From a virus: a DNA stretch of 23,042 nucleotides. The notes beneath the pieces were generated by a model. It did not search any database. It saw only the letters and a program-made list of their open reading frames with translations, and was not told where the DNA came from. The translations under genes were made by a program, and so were the position numbers. Where the stretch lies: positions 1 to 23,042 of the IMG/VR virus record IMGVR_UViG_3300032050_000852. One strand, written 5' to 3'. This document shows, piece after piece, positions 4,955-21,315 of this stretch. Numbering within the stretch: the stretch's first letter is position 1; each line of letters opens with the position of its first letter.

Positions 4955-5370
4955 TAATCCATTGGTTTATCTATCGGGTCAATATTTAGGATAGATATGT
5001 TAGTTTGTTCGGTTTGCAGTCTATCAGTCCACCCTAATTTATTCTTAGCGTAAAATATTCCTTTACCTTCATTTGCAACAATATCAGCCGCCAAAGATTG
5101 GAAAAGTTCGTCAATCTTTTTTATAGTGTCCCGTTTAAGCTCACATTCGCCTTTACGCCACTCGTAATAAGTATTCCTACCTATTGTATCCAATTTCAAC
5201 AAAGGAAGCCATATATTAAGAAAATAGGCTATTGTAGGTATATGCCTATCTTCAATCTTAACTATCTTACCCGAGCCTGTAGCTACTTCTTTAGTGTGCG
5301 ATAAACATTCTTTAATGTACGCATCCGCATACTCAGGCAATGCTTTTATAAATTCTATTGACTTAGCCAT
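4954..5370 (-). CDS. terS: Phage terminase small subunit (DNA recognition)
   Basis: A 138-residue protein just upstream of terL. I place the start at the ATG at 5370 (MAKSIEFIKALPEY), which overlaps the lipoprotein stop as TAATG; an in-frame ATG at 5388 is possible but would overlap more. The middle reads TIGRNTYYEWRKGECELKRD, a helix-turn-helix-like stretch, and the C-terminus reads GIFYAKNKLGWTDRLQ, typical of small terminases with an HTH followed by helical oligomerisation and a terL-binding tail. It likely recognises the packaging site and recruits TerL. Confidence 0.75.
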   Translation of the reverse strand: MAKSIEFIKALPEYADAYIKECLSHTKEVATGSGKIVKIEDRHIPTIAYFLNIWLPLLKLDTIGRNTYYEWRKGECELKRDTIKKIDELFQSLAADIVANEGKGIFYAKNKLGWTDRLQTEQTNISILNIDPIDKPMD

Positions 5371-11204: not shown

Positions 11205-11380
11205 AAAAATTAGATTCCGTTCCTTCATATAGAAAAATATGTATAGCATTAATGAAAAACGAAAATAATTTAGAAATATTAGGATATTCAAGAAAAAAAA
11301 CTTTAGTGTATAGTGAATTAAAACGAATAGAAATAGAACAAAGATTTACAAAAAATAAACAATTAAAATTAAATTTATGA
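11111..11380 (+). CDS. 89-aa protein related to the C-terminal part of the IbrA-like protein
   Basis: The protein contains KKYINQWEQKGYPNGIPDEV and a following SVPSYRKICIALMKNENNLE. The second stretch resembles the C-terminus of the adjacent 442-aa protein (FRHCPNWKAVCITIMKNDF), sharing the W/Y-K-x-(I/V)CI-x-(I/L)MKN core. It therefore looks like a stand-alone copy of the DUF3440-associated C-terminal domain. It overlaps the upstream gene by 94 nt and the downstream gene by 4 nt. It may be a partner subunit that contacts the IbrA-like enzyme. Confidence 0.65.
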   Translation: MGTKSKIKKYINQWEQKGYPNGIPDEVPIQLEKLDSVPSYRKICIALMKNENNLEILGYSRKKTLVYSELKRIEIEQRFTKNKQLKLNL

Positions 11381-12705
11381 ATGTATTAGAAGCAACAAAT
11401 AAAAGATTAGAAATAATTTTTAGAGATTTTGAAAATGTATTAGTAGCGTTTTCTTGTGGTAAAGATAGTGGTGTAATGCTATCACTTACTTATAAATATG
11501 CTAAAGAAAATAATCTATTACATAAACTTTCATTTTACTATGAAGATTATGAAGCTGGATATAGACATACAGACGAATATGCTGATAGAATTTTTTCTGA
11601 ATTAAATGATGTAAAGGCTAGGTATTGGTTATGTTTACCAATTTCGGCTGCTTGTTCTGTATCAATGTATGAGCCTAGATGGATTCCGTGGGATAAAGAT
11701 AAAAAAGATATTTGGGTTAGAGATATGCCAAAATACGATTATGTAATAAATGAAGATAATTGTCCTTATGAATTTACTAAAGGCACTAAGGGATTTGATG
11801 CACGTATTCAATTTAGTACATGGTATGGAGATACGTTTGGTAAAACAGCTGTATTGATTGGCATTAGAGCAGAAGAAAGTTTAACACGTAGAGGTATATT
11901 TACTTCTCAACATAGAAAGTATATGCACAAAGGATTAAACTATTCTAAGATAGTAGATAAAAATACTATAAACTTTTATCCTATTTATGACTGGCAAACA
12001 GAAGATATTTGGATATGCAACAATAAGTTTGAATTTGATTATAATAAGATTTATGATTTATATTATCAAGCTGGTTTAACTATTGACCAAATGAGGGTTG
12101 CTAGTCCGTTCCATTTATCGGGACAAGAAAACTTAAAACTATATAAAGTTATTGATCCTAATAACTGGGGGAAAATGGTAGGTAGAGTTAATGGATGTAA
12201 TTTTGGTGGTATTTACGGTGGAACTTCTGCAATGGGATGGAAAAAAATAAGTAAACCTAATCACTTTACATGGAAACAATATGCTGAATTTTTACTAGAT
12301 ACTTTACCAGAAGAAACAAAAAAAAAATTTAATTATCATTTAAAAAGATTTACAGACGTTTGGAAAAATAAAGGATATGGTAGAAATCCAAGAGTAATAA
12401 AACAGATTGAAGATGCTGGTATTGAAATAGAAAGGACTGGAAATATAAGTAAACTTTGTAAGAAAAAAGATATTTATGAGATAATAAAAATAAAAGGTGA
12501 ATGGGTTGATGAAATAAATATAGAAAATTCTACTCCATTTAGACATTGCCCAAACTGGAAAGCTGTTTGTATTACAATAATGAAAAATGATTTTGGATTA
12601 ACATATATGAGTTGCGGCAGAACTCAGGATAAAAATATATTAAAACAAAAAAGCATGAATAAATTTAAAAAATTACAAGATTTAAAAAAAATAACTAAAA
12701 AATAA
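11377..12705 (+). CDS. ibrA: IbrA-like PAPS-reductase-family protein (DUF3440)
   Basis: This 442-residue protein belongs to the phosphoadenosine-phosphosulfate reductase / ATP-pyrophosphatase fold. Residues 24-35 (AFSCGKDSGVML) hold the PP-loop SxGKDS that binds ATP or PAPS. Further family features are GIRAEESLTRRG (about 168-179) and PIYDWQTEDIW (about 203-213). The C-terminal third is the DUF3440-type extension. IbrA and IbrB occur together in prophage-like loci; biochemical function is unsettled. The fold is shared with DndC, which activates sulfur for DNA phosphorothioation, so a nucleic-acid modification or anti-defence role is possible but unproven. No key residue of the PP-loop is missing. 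Confidence 0.85.
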   Translation: MNVLEATNKRLEIIFRDFENVLVAFSCGKDSGVMLSLTYKYAKENNLLHKLSFYYEDYEAGYRHTDEYADRIFSELNDVKARYWLCLPISAACSVSMYEPRWIPWDKDKKDIWVRDMPKYDYVINEDNCPYEFTKGTKGFDARIQFSTWYGDTFGKTAVLIGIRAEESLTRRGIFTSQHRKYMHKGLNYSKIVDKNTINFYPIYDWQTEDIWICNNKFEFDYNKIYDLYYQAGLTIDQMRVASPFHLSGQENLKLYKVIDPNNWGKMVGRVNGCNFGGIYGGTSAMGWKKISKPNHFTWKQYAEFLLDTLPEETKKKFNYHLKRFTDVWKNKGYGRNPRVIKQIEDAGIEIERTGNISKLCKKKDIYEIIKIKGEWVDEINIENSTPFRHCPNWKAVCITIMKNDFGLTYMSCGRTQDKNILKQKSMNKFKKLQDLKKITKK

Positions 12706-17431: not shown

Positions 17432-17540
17432 GTTATAAGTCTGGTGGTGGCATAGGTGAATTTGGTTGAAAGCAGAAATGCTGGATTTACTTCTGACACC
17501 GAAGAAGTTGAATTGCTTCGAGCCACCACTTACTTATAAC
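17432..17540 (+). ncRNA. Gene-less cassette holding a structured, cloverleaf-like element
   Basis: The segment is bounded by GTTATAAGT (17432-17440) and its complement ACTTATAAC (17532-17540). Inside, GTGGTGGC (17444-17451) pairs with GCCACCAC (17522-17529). Further stems are GGTG/CACC (17455-17458 with 17497-17500), CAGAA/TTCTG (17473-17495) and CGAAG/CTTCG (17500-17520). Together they make a branched fold. No open frame of useful length lies within. It is not a standard tRNA because no T-arm with TTCRANY fits. The cargo of this first cassette is therefore probably an RNA. Confidence 0.5.
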
Positions 17541-17598
17541 ATTTTGCGGCTAAACGCTGCGTAGCGTAACAAAGTTGCGATTTAGGTGCTGTTATAAG
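17532..17598 (+). repeat. attC-like site 1
   Basis: Outer boxes ACTTATAAC and GTTATAAG. Inner arms GCGGCTAAA and TTTAGGTGC with an unpaired G-G position, plus a short CGC/GCG apex stem. The spacing from GTGC to GTTA is a single T, as at other sites of the array. Confidence 0.7.
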
Positions 17599-17629
17599 TA
17601 GTTGCGGATTATTAAAACAAAAATATAAA

Positions 17630-17938
17630 ATGGAAAGAAGAATAAAATCGGAATGGTTTAGATTGGATAGACCGATTGGAGAACCTTATGAAAAATGGTA
17701 TAACGAGGCTTACGACATTGAAAGAGTAGTAACATCAGATGGAACAACGATTTGGTTTGGATGCTCAACAAATTGGAAAAAAGAAAAGGATGGCGAGTGG
17801 ACAAAACTCACTACCAATGAAGATGCTAAACCATTGGATAAGTATTTACCTGAAATAGTTTATGGTGAGGATAGGAATATATTTGTAAAATGTGACATTC
17901 CTATTTACGAGAAACTCTATTTGGAACTCGGAACGTAG
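17630..17938 (+). CDS. Cassette 2 protein, 102 aa, unknown function
   Basis: The cassette runs from GTTATAAGTAGTTGC (17591-17605) to its near-complement GCAATTACTTATAAC (17938-17952). The protein starts MERRIKSEWFRLDRPIGEPY and is rich in Trp, Tyr and charged residues (EKWYNEAYDIE, TTIWFGCSTNWKKE), suggesting a small beta-rich globular protein. I recognise no domain, signal peptide or membrane segment. The start is 33 nt inside the cassette, and the stop lies just at the R'' arm of the next site, a usual tight fit for cassette genes. Confidence 0.65.
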   Translation: MERRIKSEWFRLDRPIGEPYEKWYNEAYDIERVVTSDGTTIWFGCSTNWKKEKDGEWTKLTTNEDAKPLDKYLPEIVYGEDRNIFVKCDIPIYEKLYLELGT

Positions 17939-17945
17939 CAATTAC

Positions 17946-18079
17946 TTATAACGGTTGAGTATAAGAGAAGTAAACGTGAACCAAGAAGCCTATAGAAGTT
18001 GAGCCATTAATCAACCATGTGGAGGTGTAAAAAACCACAGAAAAAACACCACGTTTATTTCTTTTATACTTTGTTATAA
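17946..18079 (+). repeat. attC-like site 2, long (134 bp)
   Basis: TTATAAC (17946) and GTTATAA (18073) bound a 21-bp stem (17958-17978 with 18050-18070), with only two G-T wobbles. The large apex contains GTTGA/TCAAC and a GTGG/CCAC hairpin. Its arms differ from the GCAGCT/AGGTGC class, so it represents a second site type. Confidence 0.7.
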
Positions 18080-18192
18080 AATCGTTTTAATGTTTTATAA
18101 CGTTTTGCAGCTTTAAGAAGTGGCTGCCTAAAAATTACTTCATTTGTAAAACAAAGGCTATTAGCAGCCATTTATTAAAGGTGCTGTTAGTG
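18073..18192 (+). repeat. Empty cassette 3 with attC-like site 3
   Basis: GTTATAAAA (18073-18081) and TTTTATAAC (18093-18101) are only 11 nt apart, so this cassette has no gene. Site 3 follows: 18107-18127 pairs with 18164-18184 through GCAGCTTTAA/TTAAAGGTGC and TGGCTGC/GCAGCCA. It ends at GTTAGTGG (18186-18193), where cassette 4 begins. The 276-base stretch 17939-18214 thus contains two sites and no gene. Confidence 0.65.
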
Positions 18193-18214
18193 GTCTGTTA
18201 AAACTAAAATTAGC

Positions 18215-18538
18215 GTGGGATTATTAGACAAAAAATTTAAAGTACGAGTAAGCCATTTTGCTGAATGTAAATATACGGTTGATTATGCTTATTACAGATT
18301 TATACCTGTGTGGCATTCGTTATGTTTTTGGTTTGAGCAAGGGCATCCAGGAGGAACAGAATGTTGGAGTACTGATATGTGGGATGTTAAAACGGCTGAA
18401 CGAATTGCAAGTGAAATAAAAACAATAAATGATGTTAGAGAATATTACAAGCCACTTGAAGAGAAAGAAGCAAAATGGGAACAAATCGAAAAAGAATATT
18501 GGCAAAATAACGCTCCTTATGTGCATAAGGAATTTTAG
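18215..18538 (+). CDS. Cassette 4 protein, 107 aa, unknown function
   Basis: The cassette lies between GTTAGTGG (18186) and its exact complement CCACTAAC (18550-18557). The gene starts with GTG at 18215, about 29 nt inside. The protein is aromatic-rich (YAYYRFIPVWHSLCFWFEQG, then HPGGTECWSTDMWD), followed by a charged helix ending in VHKEF. No signal peptide or membrane segment fits well despite the aromatics. I do not recognise the family. Being alone in an excisable unit suggests a self-contained function. Confidence 0.6.
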   Translation: MGLLDKKFKVRVSHFAECKYTVDYAYYRFIPVWHSLCFWFEQGHPGGTECWSTDMWDVKTAERIASEIKTINDVREYYKPLEEKEAKWEQIEKEYWQNNAPYVHKEF

Positions 18539-18549
18539 TTTTAATTGCC

Positions 18550-18604
18550 ACTAACGTTTTGCGGCTAATAAATCGGTTTGCTGTTTATTAGGTGCGTTTA
18601 TAGG
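18550..18604 (+). repeat. attC-like site 4
   Basis: Arms GCGGCTAATAAA (18563-18574) and TTTATTAGGTGC (18586-18597). The right end reads GTTTATAG rather than GTTATAAG and lacks the usual single T spacer, so this junction has diverged. Confidence 0.65.
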
Positions 18605-18656
18605 TAGGTTGTAACGAATGTTTAATTAATACAAAATATAAAAAATAACAATAGAT

Positions 18657-18812
18657 ATGGAAAACGAAGACTTGAATAAAAAAATAAAATCTGAAATTGA
18701 ATCACAAATTAGAATAGCTAGGGATGTTAAATTGAGTGATTATAATTTAGCGACAATGATATTTGTTGCGCTTGAAATGAAAGGATTTTTAACCGAAAAA
18801 CTAAAACAATGA
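18657..18812 (+). CDS. Cassette 5 first protein, 51 aa
   Basis: ATG 18657 opens a 51-codon frame, MENEDLNKKIKSEIESQIRI and then ARDVKLSDYNLATMIFVALE. It overlaps the next gene by 4 nt as ATGA, so the two form a coupled pair. The protein is helical and charged with a hydrophobic C-terminal half. Two small coupled genes in one cassette is the layout of toxin-antitoxin modules, but neither product matches a family I know. Confidence 0.55.
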   Translation: MENEDLNKKIKSEIESQIRIARDVKLSDYNLATMIFVALEMKGFLTEKLKQ

Positions 18813-19039
18813 GCCAACTTAATTTAGATTTTAACGAAAAACTAAAACAAGACGAAAGTAAAATAGACGTTAATCAATTATTTAAAGATTATGCTAACGC
18901 CTTAAGTAAATTACCAAAATCGTATTATTTACCAAAAAACGGATATACGGTTATACCTAGTGAGGTGAGCAAGTTACTACAGAATATAAATAACAATGAA
19001 CCAATGTGCTGTTATAAGCTGACGGTTACGAATGGATAA
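18809..19039 (+). CDS. Cassette 5 second protein, 76 aa, C-terminus encoded by a site remnant
   Basis: This frame starts in the ATGA overlap and encodes MSQLNLDFNEKLKQDESKID and on. The last codons, giving CCYKLTVTNG, are read from a truncated attC-like site and run 29 nt into the next cassette, past GTTATAAGC at 19011. The true original stop was probably lost together with the missing part of the site. The N-terminal acidic region and central SKLPKSYYLPKNGYTVIP stretch look like a small globular protein. Function is unknown. Confidence 0.5.
   Translation: MSQLNLDFNEKLKQDESKIDVNQLFKDYANALSKLPKSYYLPKNGYTVIPSEVSKLLQNINNNEPMCCYKLTVTNG
18988..19019 (+). repeat. attC-like site 5, truncated remnant
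   Basis: Only AAATAAC (18988-18994) and TGTGCTGTTATAAGC (to 19019) remain; the paired arms are missing. The right half still matches the other sites, so it may be read as a junction that can no longer fold. Confidence 0.5.
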
Positions 19040-19064
19040 TTAATACACAATATAAAAAAACACT

Positions 19065-19172
19065 ATGAAAAAATACACATACAGAGATTTAAAGATTGCG
19101 TTTTTGCTAGGCTCAATATCAACAACATTATTAAACTTATTAATAATAGAATTTTTTTTTTTAAATAAATAA
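19065..19172 (+). CDS. Cassette 6 first protein, 35-aa membrane peptide
   Basis: ATG 19065 opens 35 codons starting MKKYTYRDLKIAFLLGSIST. Residues about 11-33 form one hydrophobic segment ending in FFFLNK. A single-pass membrane peptide with a basic N-terminus is predicted. It ends one base before the 98-aa gene, suggesting a two-gene cassette. A run of T's at 19152-19162 inside the coding end could also be slippage-prone. Confidence 0.45.
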   Translation: MKKYTYRDLKIAFLLGSISTTLLNLLIIEFFFLNK

Positions 19173-19173
19173 A

Positions 19174-19470
19174 ATGGATAATAGAACTATAAAAATAAAA
19201 GAATTAATAAAAGGACAGGTTGATATGGTAACATTTGGGCTTGTAGAACTTGAATTATTAAATTTTGAAAAAGAAATTGAAAAACTTAAAATACAAATAA
19301 GTGGAAAAACATTCTTTGATAAAGAAGAAGTTTTAATACTTCAAATTAAGGATTTAGAATTGCATAATAATGATTTAAGAAATGATTATATCGTAGCAAT
19401 TAAAATGCTTAGAACAAAATTTACAGATGATGAGATTAGTGAATTTTACAACAAACCCGTTACAAAGTAG
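19174..19470 (+). CDS. Cassette 6 second protein, 98-aa coiled coil
   Basis: The protein is almost entirely helical: VELELLNFEKEIEKLKIQIS, then EVLILQIKDLELHNNDLRND, which reads as a coiled coil with Leu/Ile in heptad positions. It ends FYNKPVTK just before the R'' arm at 19480. It could dimerise with itself or pair with the membrane peptide upstream. No known family is recognised. Confidence 0.6.
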   Translation: MDNRTIKIKELIKGQVDMVTFGLVELELLNFEKEIEKLKIQISGKTFFDKEEVLILQIKDLELHNNDLRNDYIVAIKMLRTKFTDDEISEFYNKPVTK

Positions 19471-19479
19471 CTACCGTTT

Positions 19480-19538
19480 GCTTATAACGGATTGCAGCTA
19501 ATAAATCGGCTTGCTGTTTATTAGGTGCTGTTATAAGC
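19480..19538 (+). repeat. attC-like site 6
   Basis: GCTTATAAC (19480-19488), arms GCAGCTAATAAA (19494-19505) and TTTATTAGGTGC (19517-19528), and GTTATAAGC (19530-19538). This is the most regular site. The 29 bases at 19525-19553 are identical to 19006-19034. Confidence 0.75.
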
Positions 19539-19615
19539 TGACGGTTACGAATGTTACTATGAAAAATTAATTTAAAAAAATAACGATATTAAAATAGAAA
19601 AAATAAAACAAAACA

Positions 19616-19819
19616 ATGAAACTACCGAGACACATATACGAGAAAAAAGAACACGGAGACGGTATAGCTATATCAAGAATGTACGGAGTGCCTAAATCAT
19701 CTGTTAGCGATGTTTTTCAGGTTGGAGAGGGAAAAACAAATACAGTAAGAGCTATCATTGATTTTTACAACGTGAAATATGGTAGACCTGAAATATATAA
19801 TTTAAAAAAACTTATATAA
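19616..19819 (+). CDS. Cassette 7 Cro-like DNA-binding protein, 67 aa
   Basis: The protein starts MKLPRHIYEKKEHGDGIAIS and contains MYGVPKSSVSDVFQVGEG, a helix-turn-helix. It resembles the phage's own 58-aa protein at 6983: both have MK(I/L)P, KKE-x-GD, AI, a Val in the recognition-helix region, G-x-G and TV-x-AI. The cassette copy has a longer C-terminus (KYGRPEIYNLKKLI). A cassette gene homologous to a resident phage regulator suggests regulator exchange or competition for operators. The gene starts about 85 nt inside the cassette. Confidence 0.65.
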   Translation: MKLPRHIYEKKEHGDGIAISRMYGVPKSSVSDVFQVGEGKTNTVRAIIDFYNVKYGRPEIYNLKKLI

Positions 19820-19849
19820 TCAAAAATATAAATAACGCCACCACCTTTT

Positions 19850-19986
19850 GCTTATAACGTTAAAACGCTTGGCGAAGAAGCGGACTTGAAAGCACAGACT
19901 TTCAGTTTATCACAAAAGCCAATAGGAAGCACGAATATTCAATTTATCACTAAACCCGCTTTTTTGCCAAACGTGTGTTATGTGCC
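19850..19986 (+). repeat. attC-like site 7, long (about 137 bp)
   Basis: GCTTATAAC (19850) and GTTATGTGCC (19977-19986) bound arms ACGCTTGGCGAAGAAGCGG (19865-19883) and CCGCTTTTTTGCCAAACGT (19956-19974), pairing with two G-T wobbles and one C-A mismatch. It belongs to neither the GCAGCT class nor the site 2 class. I have a general memory of similar repeats in Bacteroidetes genomes but cannot verify it here. Confidence 0.7.
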
Positions 19987-20035
19987 GTTTTTTTTAGAGT
20001 AGAATTTTAATTTAACAATATAAACAAATAACAAA

Positions 20036-20494
20036 ATGGGAATAGATACCAAAGCAATCCTTAGAAAAGGAACAACGATTGAACAAATCGAAAAAGCAAT
20101 TTCTGACAAATATACAGAAGTTGAAGTTAGAGCAACAATGCCTGATTTTATGTATGTAACATTCAAAGATGCTGCTGACCAAAGACAACTTGCAGTTTCA
20201 TTTACAAACTCTTGTGAACGAGATGATAATATTTCGGGTGTTTGGACATCTCTTGGCAAATGGGGTAATTCAGTTGAAATAGCAAGATACCTATGTGAAA
20301 CATTTGGTGGGTATCTTGACGAAAATGATTGTGATGATGAAGGTTATTATCCAATAAATTTTCACCTTTATTCACAAGGAAACGAATTTACTAAACTTGA
20401 TGAATTTCGTCATAAGGTCATAAAAGAAGTTGGATATGACAAGCTAAAATCAGTTATGAAATTGCTTGATGAATATTCGGAGGTAGTGTCTTAA
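20036..20494 (+). CDS. Cassette 8 protein, 152 aa, unknown function
   Basis: The cassette is bounded by GTTATGTGCC (19977) and its complement GGCACATAAC (20498-20507). The protein begins MGIDTKAILRKGTTIEQIEK and alternates strands and helices (VTFKDAADQRQLAVSF, SVEIARYLCETFGGYL, later VIKEVGYDKLKSVMKLLDEY). It is an acidic cytosolic protein with no signal peptide. The overall shape resembles small immunity-like or DUF proteins, but I recognise no family. It is the largest hypothetical cargo gene in the array. Confidence 0.7.
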   Translation: MGIDTKAILRKGTTIEQIEKAISDKYTEVEVRATMPDFMYVTFKDAADQRQLAVSFTNSCERDDNISGVWTSLGKWGNSVEIARYLCETFGGYLDENDCDDEGYYPINFHLYSQGNEFTKLDEFRHKVIKEVGYDKLKSVMKLLDEYSEVVS

Positions 20495-20497
20495 AAT

Positions 20498-20569
20498 GGC
20501 ACATAACGGTTTGCAGCTAACCGATAGTTTTTGCTTTTCGCAAAAATTTTGGTTAGGTGCTGTTATATT
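20498..20569 (+). repeat. attC-like site 8
   Basis: Arms GCAGCTAACC (20513-20522) and GGTTAGGTGC (20551-20560), apex stem TTTTTGC/GCAAAAA (20528-20546), then T and GTTATATT (20562-20569). It carries the same unpaired G-G position as sites 1, 3, 4 and 6. Confidence 0.75.
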
Positions 20570-20624
20570 TAGTTGCCTAGAATAGCAATGCGTAGTGTAA
20601 AACATAAATTTTAAAATAAAACAA

Positions 20625-20801
20625 ATGGAAAACTTATCAGAAACTATAAAAATAAAATTCTTTTGTAATGCTGGACATACGGAAGAAGAAGTTACAATTG
20701 AAATTTATAAATATCATAAACAAACCGAAGAACAACAGATTGAAGCGGCATTTCATAAATGGTTAGATAATAATGAAGATTGTGGTTGGGAAAAAATTTA
20801 A
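20625..20801 (+). CDS. Cassette 9 first protein, 58 aa, unknown function
   Basis: ATG 20625 opens a 58-codon frame, MENLSETIKIKFFCNAGHTE and then EEVTIEIYKYHKQTEEQQIE, ending DCGWEKI. It is acidic, with a beta-like N-terminal half and a helical C-terminal half. It lies 8 nt before the methyltransferase start and shares its cassette, so the two are probably co-transcribed. It could be a specificity or control partner, but nothing in the sequence proves that. Confidence 0.55.
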   Translation: MENLSETIKIKFFCNAGHTEEEVTIEIYKYHKQTEEQQIEAAFHKWLDNNEDCGWEKI

Positions 20802-20809
20802 TAATTAAT

Positions 20810-21286
20810 ATGAAAAAAATACACATAAACAATGATGATAATTACGCAACACCGCCCGAATTTTACGAGCAGTTGAATAAGCGTTTTAACTTTGATTTTG
20901 ACCCATGCCCGTACAATGAAAATGAGATCCTAAATGATGGGTTAAAAATTGAGTGGGGAAAATCAAATTTTGTAAATCCGCCTTATAGCCAAAAACTAAA
21001 AGAGGAATTTATAAAGAAAGGAGTTGAGGAAATGAAGAAAGGTAAAGTTTCCGTTTTTTTAATCCCAGTATCAACATCTACAAAACTATTTCACGAATGG
21101 ATTAAACCATTTGCAGCCGAAATAGAATTTGTAAAAGGTAGGATCAAATTTGGTAAACTAGATGAAGACGGAAACTTTTATTTACCATTAAATACAAATG
21201 GTAAAACTCAAAGTGGAACAAAAGACAGTATGATCGTAATTTTTAAACCTAGTGAGTTACCCACAGGTGCGGTTGGAGGCAATTGA
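20810..21286 (+). CDS. dam: Phage-type DNA N6-adenine methyltransferase (Dam family)
   Basis: I start at ATG 20810 because the upstream in-frame ATG at 20780 lies inside the 58-aa gene. The 158-residue protein begins with NYATPPEFYEQL, the usual opening of phage Dam-like enzymes. It has DFDPCPYNE (about residues 29-37), an AdoMet-binding strand, and the catalytic NPPYS (56-60). Length fits the short phage Dam group, which lacks an obvious target-recognition domain. It would methylate adenine in phage DNA, often to resist host restriction. It is the last cargo gene of the array; its stop lies next to GGCAATTGAATATAAC, the complement of its cassette's start. Confidence 0.85.
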   Translation: MKKIHINNDDNYATPPEFYEQLNKRFNFDFDPCPYNENEILNDGLKIEWGKSNFVNPPYSQKLKEEFIKKGVEEMKKGKVSVFLIPVSTSTKLFHEWIKPFAAEIEFVKGRIKFGKLDEDGNFYLPLNTNGKTQSGTKDSMIVIFKPSELPTGAVGGN

Positions 21287-21315
21287 ATATAACTACCTGC
21301 TAAACGCAAATACTG
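21278..21315 (+). repeat. attC-like site 9, truncated array end
   Basis: GGCAATTGAATATAAC (21278-21293) pairs with GTTATATTTAGTTGCC at the start of the same cassette (20562-20577) with two mismatches or wobbles. It is followed by CTGCTAAACGC, resembling an L'' arm, but no matching right half exists. The array therefore ends in half a site. Confidence 0.6.

What the first reader, a model, noticed from the sequence alone, without database searches (positions are those of the whole stretch)
17432..21315. Integron-like cassette array inside a Bacteroidetes phage genome
The sequence shows about nine consecutive units, all oriented the same way, each holding zero to two small genes and ending in an imperfect hairpin flanked by ATAAC and GTTA boxes. 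Established knowledge: integron attC sites have paired outer boxes with a GTT core, inner arms with unpaired positions, and tolerate very different loop lengths; arrays without integrase are called CALINs. The right arms here (TTAGGTGC-T-GTTAT) resemble Vibrio-type attC ends. Inference: this phage carries a mobile cassette array, which would let it pick up and shed accessory genes using a recombinase supplied from elsewhere. The core often departs from strict GTTRRRY, so it may be a divergent recombination system.
Basis: partly seen in the sequence, partly recalled or inferred. Interest (0 to 1): 0.9.

Follow-up and report, generated by a model that had tools for sequence, protein, structure and literature searches.

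The report
Phage integron-type gene cassette array
This phage carries a row of small swappable gene cassettes, and related phages carry such rows beside their own recombinase and entry site, so they appear to have a phage version of the bacterial integron that trades genes, notably DNA methyltransferases.

Summary
The array is real: seven complete attC-like hairpins plus partial sites. In eight segments the two ends complement each other, not the neighbour (only 2 of 40,320 permutations do as well). Among 307 such sites, 28 pairs show natural swaps, all breaking within about 5 nt of TAA|C LEFT of the hairpin; four break on the right. Relatives show single-cassette presence/absence and complete reordering. 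The window has no recombinase. In other phages the arrays lie directly upstream of a ~280-aa tyrosine recombinase (129 sites upstream on its strand, 5 elsewhere), joined at a conserved attI-like site, TAA|CTAYTATATGTA. The recombinase is nearest IntI4 and XerA but lacks the IntI insert and misses the IntI cut-off. Cassette genes point toward it. At least one such record is clearly a tailed phage. Sixteen of 70 sampled cargo proteins are DNA methyltransferases. Phage CALINs are already published (Qi 2023); a phage lineage with its own recombinase, attI and inverted cassettes was not found in the papers searched. Nothing was tested experimentally.

The parts
17432..17539 (+). Left-most gene segment of the array without a hairpin of its own (begins GTTATAAG, ends CTTATAA|C); no ORF; tRNA-like look but no ARAGORN or Rfam match
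   Evidence: identical in L005/L006
17540..17951 (+). Unit 1: hairpin 17540-17591 plus ORF of 102 aa (17630-17938)
   Evidence: unit shared with L005/L006 at 99%
17952..18100 (+). Unit 2: long hairpin 17952-18073, no ORF; L005/L006 have a different unit here
   Evidence: (z -4.0)
18101..18554 (+). Unit 3: hairpin 18101-18186 plus ORF of 107 aa (18215-18538)
   Evidence: (z -3.8); R1 38.7 bits although not used to build R1
18555..19487 (+). Unit 4: hairpin 18555-18596, ORFs of 51, 76 and 98 aa; contains a decayed half site (right half only) at about 19000-19017, so probably two fused units
19488..19857 (+). Unit 5: hairpin 19488-19530 plus ORF of 67 aa (19616-19819)
   Evidence: (z -6.5)
19858..20506 (+). 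Unit 6: long hairpin 19858-19977 plus ORF of 152 aa (20036-20494)
20507..21292 (+). Unit 7: hairpin 20507-20562, ORF of 58 aa and a Dam-family DNA N6-adenine methyltransferase (ORF 20780-21286)
   Evidence: z -5.4; PF05869, 2.2e-20; the hairpin is 100% identical over 60-67 bp to L119 and L134
21289..21310 (+). Right boundary: left box ATATAAC plus a short half-arm; not recognisable as attI
   Evidence: rank 25 of 294 TAAC positions

Best explanation
The array is an integron-type cassette array of phages of Bacteroidota. Each mobile unit is an attC-like hairpin followed by one or two small genes. The + strand of the hairpin folds, and a phage-encoded XerA/IntI-like tyrosine recombinase exchanges strands at TAA|C (G|TTA on the complement), so that units circularise and are inserted beside the recombinase at an attI-like site (TAA|CTAYTATATGTA) about 60-130 nt before its start. 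All cassette genes point toward the recombinase. Shown by sequence comparison: site structure, breakpoints at one position, whole-cassette gain/loss and reordering, linkage to the recombinase and to attI. Inferred: that this recombinase performs the reaction, the single-stranded mechanism, co-transcription, the phylum of the hosts, and that the window's array was built by such a recombinase in trans or in a part of the genome missing from the contig.
For: Own-end complementarity in the window and over 169 units (mean 6.04; shuffled 1.18, maximum 1.49; across the hairpin 1.32). 28 swap pairs all breaking within about 5 nt of TAA|C. One 805-bp unit present in L208 and absent in L210; four units at 98.8-100% identity reordered between L211 and L213 whose recombinase regions are 98.8% identical; L119/L134. 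Sites upstream of the recombinase on its strand 129, elsewhere 5; R1 64 of 66 upstream on the same strand, none in 631 kb of control loci. Entirely different cassettes end exactly at TAA|C before a conserved block in close relatives; attI-like motif in 63 of 77 loci. Nearest structures are IntI4 and XerA. 160 of 169 units have the longest ORF pointing toward the recombinase. + strand folds better in all seven window sites.
Against: No biochemical test. The window itself has neither recombinase nor recognisable attI. Most array-bearing records (39 of 48) show no such recombinase, though many are fragments. 17 of 68 recombinase loci with enough upstream DNA show no site at the threshold used. 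Four pairs break on the right of the hairpin. Some loci are near-duplicates, so pairs are not all independent. The attI pattern was loosened for part of the loci.
Confidence: 0.82

Rival explanations
1. The hairpins are fixed intergenic elements, such as transcription terminators, and have nothing to do with recombination.
For: A terminator-like match overlaps one hairpin (20507-20523), and attC sites in general may act as weak terminators.
Against: Only three terminator-like sites in the region against 1.6 expected; own-end complementarity; whole units move, appear and are reordered.
Confidence: 0.02
2. Ordinary cassettes of a bacterial IntI integron that phages picked up; the host's IntI moves them, and the phage tyrosine recombinase nearby is only a lysogeny integrase.
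For: Phage attC sites can be recombined by bacterial IntI1, including one from Polaribacter phage P12002L (PMC9892861), in which R1 finds a weak site. PHROGs calls the recombinase an integrase.
Against: The array sits on one side and one strand of the recombinase in dozens of loci, and the cassette boundary in close relatives is exactly at the conserved block before that gene. None of 48 array-bearing viral records and none of five MAGs has an IntI over the cut-off. R1 hits at 1e-5 in only 5 of 396 Bacteroidota genomes.
Confidence: 0.1
3. Homologous recombination between similar hairpins shuffles the units without a site-specific enzyme.
For: Hairpins share motifs such as TAACGTTTTGCAGCTAA; the window phage has an Erf-like annealing protein.
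Against: Breakpoints would scatter through the hairpin and lie on both sides; all 28 fall at the left box, also where the two hairpins differ just beyond it. It does not explain own-end complementarity or the recombinase linkage.
Confidence: 0.05

Closest known systems
Bacterial integrons (IntI + attI + attC cassettes)
   Same: Folded attC-like hairpins with box-spacer-arm design, crossover at G|TTA, own-end complementarity of units, attI-like site next to the 5' end of a tyrosine recombinase gene, array growing from that site, reshuffled cassettes
   Different: Recombinase lacks the IntI insert; attC lies 5' of the gene and genes point toward the recombinase; core is GTTA followed by varied bases rather than GTTRRRY; in phages
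CALINs in phages (Qi et al. 2023, PMC9892861)
   Same: attC clusters without integrase in phage genomes, Bacteroidota phage P12002L included; DNA methyltransferase cargo
   Different: There no cognate phage recombinase or attI was described for virulent-phage CALINs; here the same site type is tied to both in related viral records
Treponema-type integrons (PMC3607928)
   Same: Integrase and cassette genes transcribed in one direction
   Different: In Treponema the integrase is transcribed toward attI and the array follows it; here the array precedes the recombinase, whose 5' end faces attI
XerA / XerC / XerD recombinases
   Same: Best NCBIfam profile is NF040815 (198-206 bits for the two clade members scanned, cut-off 220); similar length
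   Different: Sits in phage genomes beside cassette arrays and a conserved attI-like site; dif sites were not examined

Membership tests
Integron (functional platform, in the related phage records) | Tyrosine recombinase gene next to an attI site at which cassettes are inserted | tested here: met
   By comparison only: different cassettes end exactly at TAA|C before the conserved block upstream of the recombinase; insertion itself not assayed
Integron (functional platform, in the related phage records) | Tandem cassettes with attC that are gained, lost and reordered | tested here: met
   L208/L210, L211/L213, L119/L134; breakpoints
Integron (the window itself) | Recombinase and attI present | tested here: not met
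   No recombinase by tblastn, no attI by ranking; the contig may be incomplete
IntI (integron integrase family) | Score over the curated TIGR02249 cut-off of 265 bits | tested here: not met
   155-165 bits in the two clade members scanned; 0 of 48 viral records over the cut-off
IntI (integron integrase family) | IntI-specific insert in the C-terminal domain | tested here: not met
   IntI4 residues 181-240 and profile positions about 181-237 unmatched; the model has about 20 residues between the flanking helices. That this stretch holds the insert is from general knowledge
attC site | Imperfect inverted repeat R''-L''-loop-L'-R' with covarying arms and a bulge or mismatch | tested here: met
   92.3% paired cells, covariation 0.246 against 0.098 in shuffles
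attC site | R' core GTTRRRY | tested here: not met
   GTTA is nearly constant, the following bases vary (TAA, GCA, GGT, CC...), many not RRY
attC site | Match to published attC models (IntegronFinder, HattCI) | not testable with these tools
   The models are not held; Rfam had no match
attC site | Located 3' of the cassette gene in canonical cassette polarity | tested here: not met
   Unit is hairpin plus following gene; 160 of 169 units have the longest ORF in that direction
CALIN | At least two attC sites without a nearby integron integrase | tested here: met
   Seven hairpins, no recombinase in the window

The most novel reading that the evidence does not exclude
A phage-specific lineage of integrons, with its own XerA-like recombinase lacking the IntI domain, its own attI, and cassettes whose genes run toward the recombinase, lets phages of Bacteroidota exchange DNA-modification and other accessory genes as ready-made cassettes.
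Probability: 0.7. Interest if true: 0.92.

Novelty: new variant of a known kind. Interest (0 to 1): 0.86.

Why it matters
Integrons are known as bacterial gene-capture platforms, and phages have been seen as occasional carriers of pieces of them. Here the same logic appears as a standing phage system with its own recombinase and entry site and cargo rich in DNA methyltransferases. It gives a concrete route by which phages could reassort accessory, possibly counter-defence, genes quickly, and searches that require IntI would not report it as a complete integron. Its main steps can be tested directly.

Tried and rejected
tRNA and Rfam searches for the first segment gave nothing significant. Five MAGs with pattern hits were searched for IntI and gave only tyrosine recombinases below the cut-off. 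An attI remnant at the window's right end was tested and not found. Control families failed to give enough loci: integrases of cultured Cellulophaga and Polaribacter phages gave two IMG/VR loci each, bacterial homologues four; the contrast of upstream with downstream and the primase-related loci served as controls instead. Ties to bacterial chromosomes: only scattered related hairpins near bacterial homologues (7 of 12 recombinase-centred stretches, none in six control stretches), mostly in another arrangement; not pursued. Searches failed on arguments or a script error and were redone or replaced; one search was a report that did not fit the form. Literature searches for phage integrons of this kind found only Qi 2023; no preprints are held.
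Full report
What is in the window. The window is a 23,042-base IMG/VR virus record with terminase, primase-helicase, Erf-like annealing protein and endolysin. After the primase region lie seven complete hairpins in one orientation with small ORFs between them, plus partial sites at 17432, 19011 and 21289. A structure-only scanner finds five of them where shuffles give none. Folding is better on the + strand in all seven, z -2.0 to -6.5.

The test that identified them as cassettes. In a circular cassette the two boxes that flank the hairpin come from the two ends of one unit; in the linear array they come from neighbours. In the window the start of each gene segment is complementary to its own end well beyond the box and not to the segment across the hairpin: own sum 68 over eight, neighbours 26 over seven, and only 2 of 40,320 permutations reach 68, the true order and a swap of two identical starts. 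Over 169 units from all loci the mean is 6.04 against 1.18 in shuffles (maximum 1.49) and 1.32 across the hairpin.

Relatives. A pattern of the site gave 74 stretches in viral contigs and 6 in 257 billion bases of bacterial and archaeal genomes; one of the latter is a 36.7-kb contig with the same 77-base site at both ends, as a circular element would give. The two collections differ in size and sampling, so this is not a measured enrichment. An alignment of 25 sites has 92% paired cells and a covariation score of 0.246 against 0.098 in shuffles. The covariance model R1 was built from it. Four window sites are in the model, so their scores are by construction; the site at 18096 was not used and scores 38.7 bits.

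Polarity. Among 307 distinct sites, pairs that share one flanking gene and not the other were compared. Ten pairs share the left gene and not the hairpin; eighteen share the hairpin and the right gene and not the left gene. In all 28 the change falls within about 5 nt of TAA|C at the left box. Breaks on the right of the hairpin: four of one kind and none of the other. Some loci overlap or are near-duplicates (L085 with L165, L163 with L168), so the pairs are not all independent. The window takes part: L005 and L006 share unit 1 and then change at TAACGGTT. The unit is therefore hairpin plus following gene; in terms of canonical attC the crossover G|TTA is on the - strand.

Mobility. L208 holds one 805-bp unit that L210 lacks, with 100% identity over 127 bp on the left and 94% over 2.3 kb on the right. 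L211 and L213 share the recombinase region at 98.8% and four units at 98.8-100%, in the order A B C D in one and C D B A in the other. L119 and L134 share a phage backbone at about 90-91% and one unit at 100% between different neighbours.

The recombinase. None of 48 array-bearing viral records has an IntI over the curated cut-off, but nine have a related tyrosine recombinase, in most of them just downstream of the sites. Six of these proteins were aligned and used to fetch 80 loci. The scanner finds 129 sites upstream on the recombinase strand, 2 upstream on the other strand (one palindromic site in two near-duplicate loci) and 3 downstream, in 327 and 424 kb. R1 gives 66 matches, 64 of them upstream on the same strand, and none in 631 kb of primase-related loci. 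Of 68 loci with at least 800 nt upstream, 51 have a site. The block before the gene begins at TAA|CTAYTATATGTA, and in close relatives entirely different cassettes end exactly there. An attI-like motif is found within 260 nt in 63 of 77 loci, with a pattern that was loosened where the strict form failed. In 396 Bacteroidota genomes the strict motif occurs three times.

What kind of recombinase. NF040815 (XerA type) is the best profile, below its cut-off; TIGR02249 gives 155-165 bits of 265 in the two clade members scanned. IntI4 aligns in two pieces with residues 181-240 unmatched. The predicted model (mean pLDDT 86) has IntI4 2A3V and XerA 5HXY as best matches, with TM-scores of only about 0.5 and large rmsd, probably because the domains are placed differently. 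A tree puts 61 of 64 phage rows on one side and the 30 top bacterial homologues on the other; the root is a midpoint, so this is a split and not a proven clade. It works like an integron integrase but fails the two IntI features tested. Among 50,697 annotated phage records the best match has 32% identity.

Are they phages? Record G453, which carries recombinase, attI-like site and array, encodes portal, terminase, major head and virion proteins. G449 has phage helicases and a reverse transcriptase. One TerL family was found in 19 of 48 array records and 9 of 50 recombinase records; for the others the viral assignment is that of IMG/VR. That the hosts are Bacteroidota is inferred from the relatives (Flavobacterium and Polaribacter phages) and from the MAGs.

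Cargo. Of 70 cassette proteins, chosen by length and mutual dissimilarity, 16 are DNA methyltransferases by Pfam counts (13 N6_N4_Mtase, 2 MT-A70, 1 Dam), three are PAPS-reductase-like and one is a TET-associated glycosyltransferase. Window unit 7 carries a Dam-family enzyme. That these serve against restriction is an inference; Qi et al. suggested the same for phage CALINs.

Relation to the literature. Qi et al. (PMC9892861) reported 17 phage CALINs, among them Polaribacter phage P12002L, and recombination of phage attC by IntI1. Integrase and cassette genes in one direction are known in Treponema, but there the array follows the integrase (PMC3607928). IntegronFinder 2 reports very few complete integrons in Bacteroidetes (PMC9024848). 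The papers searched describe no phage integron of the present kind; the library holds no preprints and lacks most subscription papers.

What is not shown. No enzyme was tested. The window has neither a recombinase nor a recognisable attI, so for the window itself the finding is a CALIN of this type; its link to the recombinase rests on the shared site type and swap rule.

Noticed in passing
window 17432-17539: Left-most segment looks tRNA-like (paired GGTGGTGG / CCACCAC ends) but ARAGORN and Rfam find nothing; it has no hairpin of its own.
   Followed up: partly
L206 7216: A second attI-like leader scores nearly as high as the one before the recombinase at 564, with an attC site at 5133 upstream of it.
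   Followed up: no
L320, L321, L322, L325, L326, L327, L328 (Bacteroidota genomes): Scattered attC-like hairpins of related design near bacterial homologues of the recombinase, mostly downstream on the opposite strand; none in six control stretches.
   Followed up: partly
L341 6667-7617 (record G449): A reverse transcriptase family protein (phrog_1423, 7.6e-113) in a phage record that also carries the recombinase and array.
   Followed up: no
window 11377-12705: A phosphoadenosine-phosphosulfate-reductase-like gene (phrog_2302) next to a ParB-like gene; the same reductase family appears among cassette cargo.
   Followed up: no
L008 414-845: A phage with about 81% identity in the primase region carries sites of the same type at another genome position, upstream of the primase.
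   Followed up: partly
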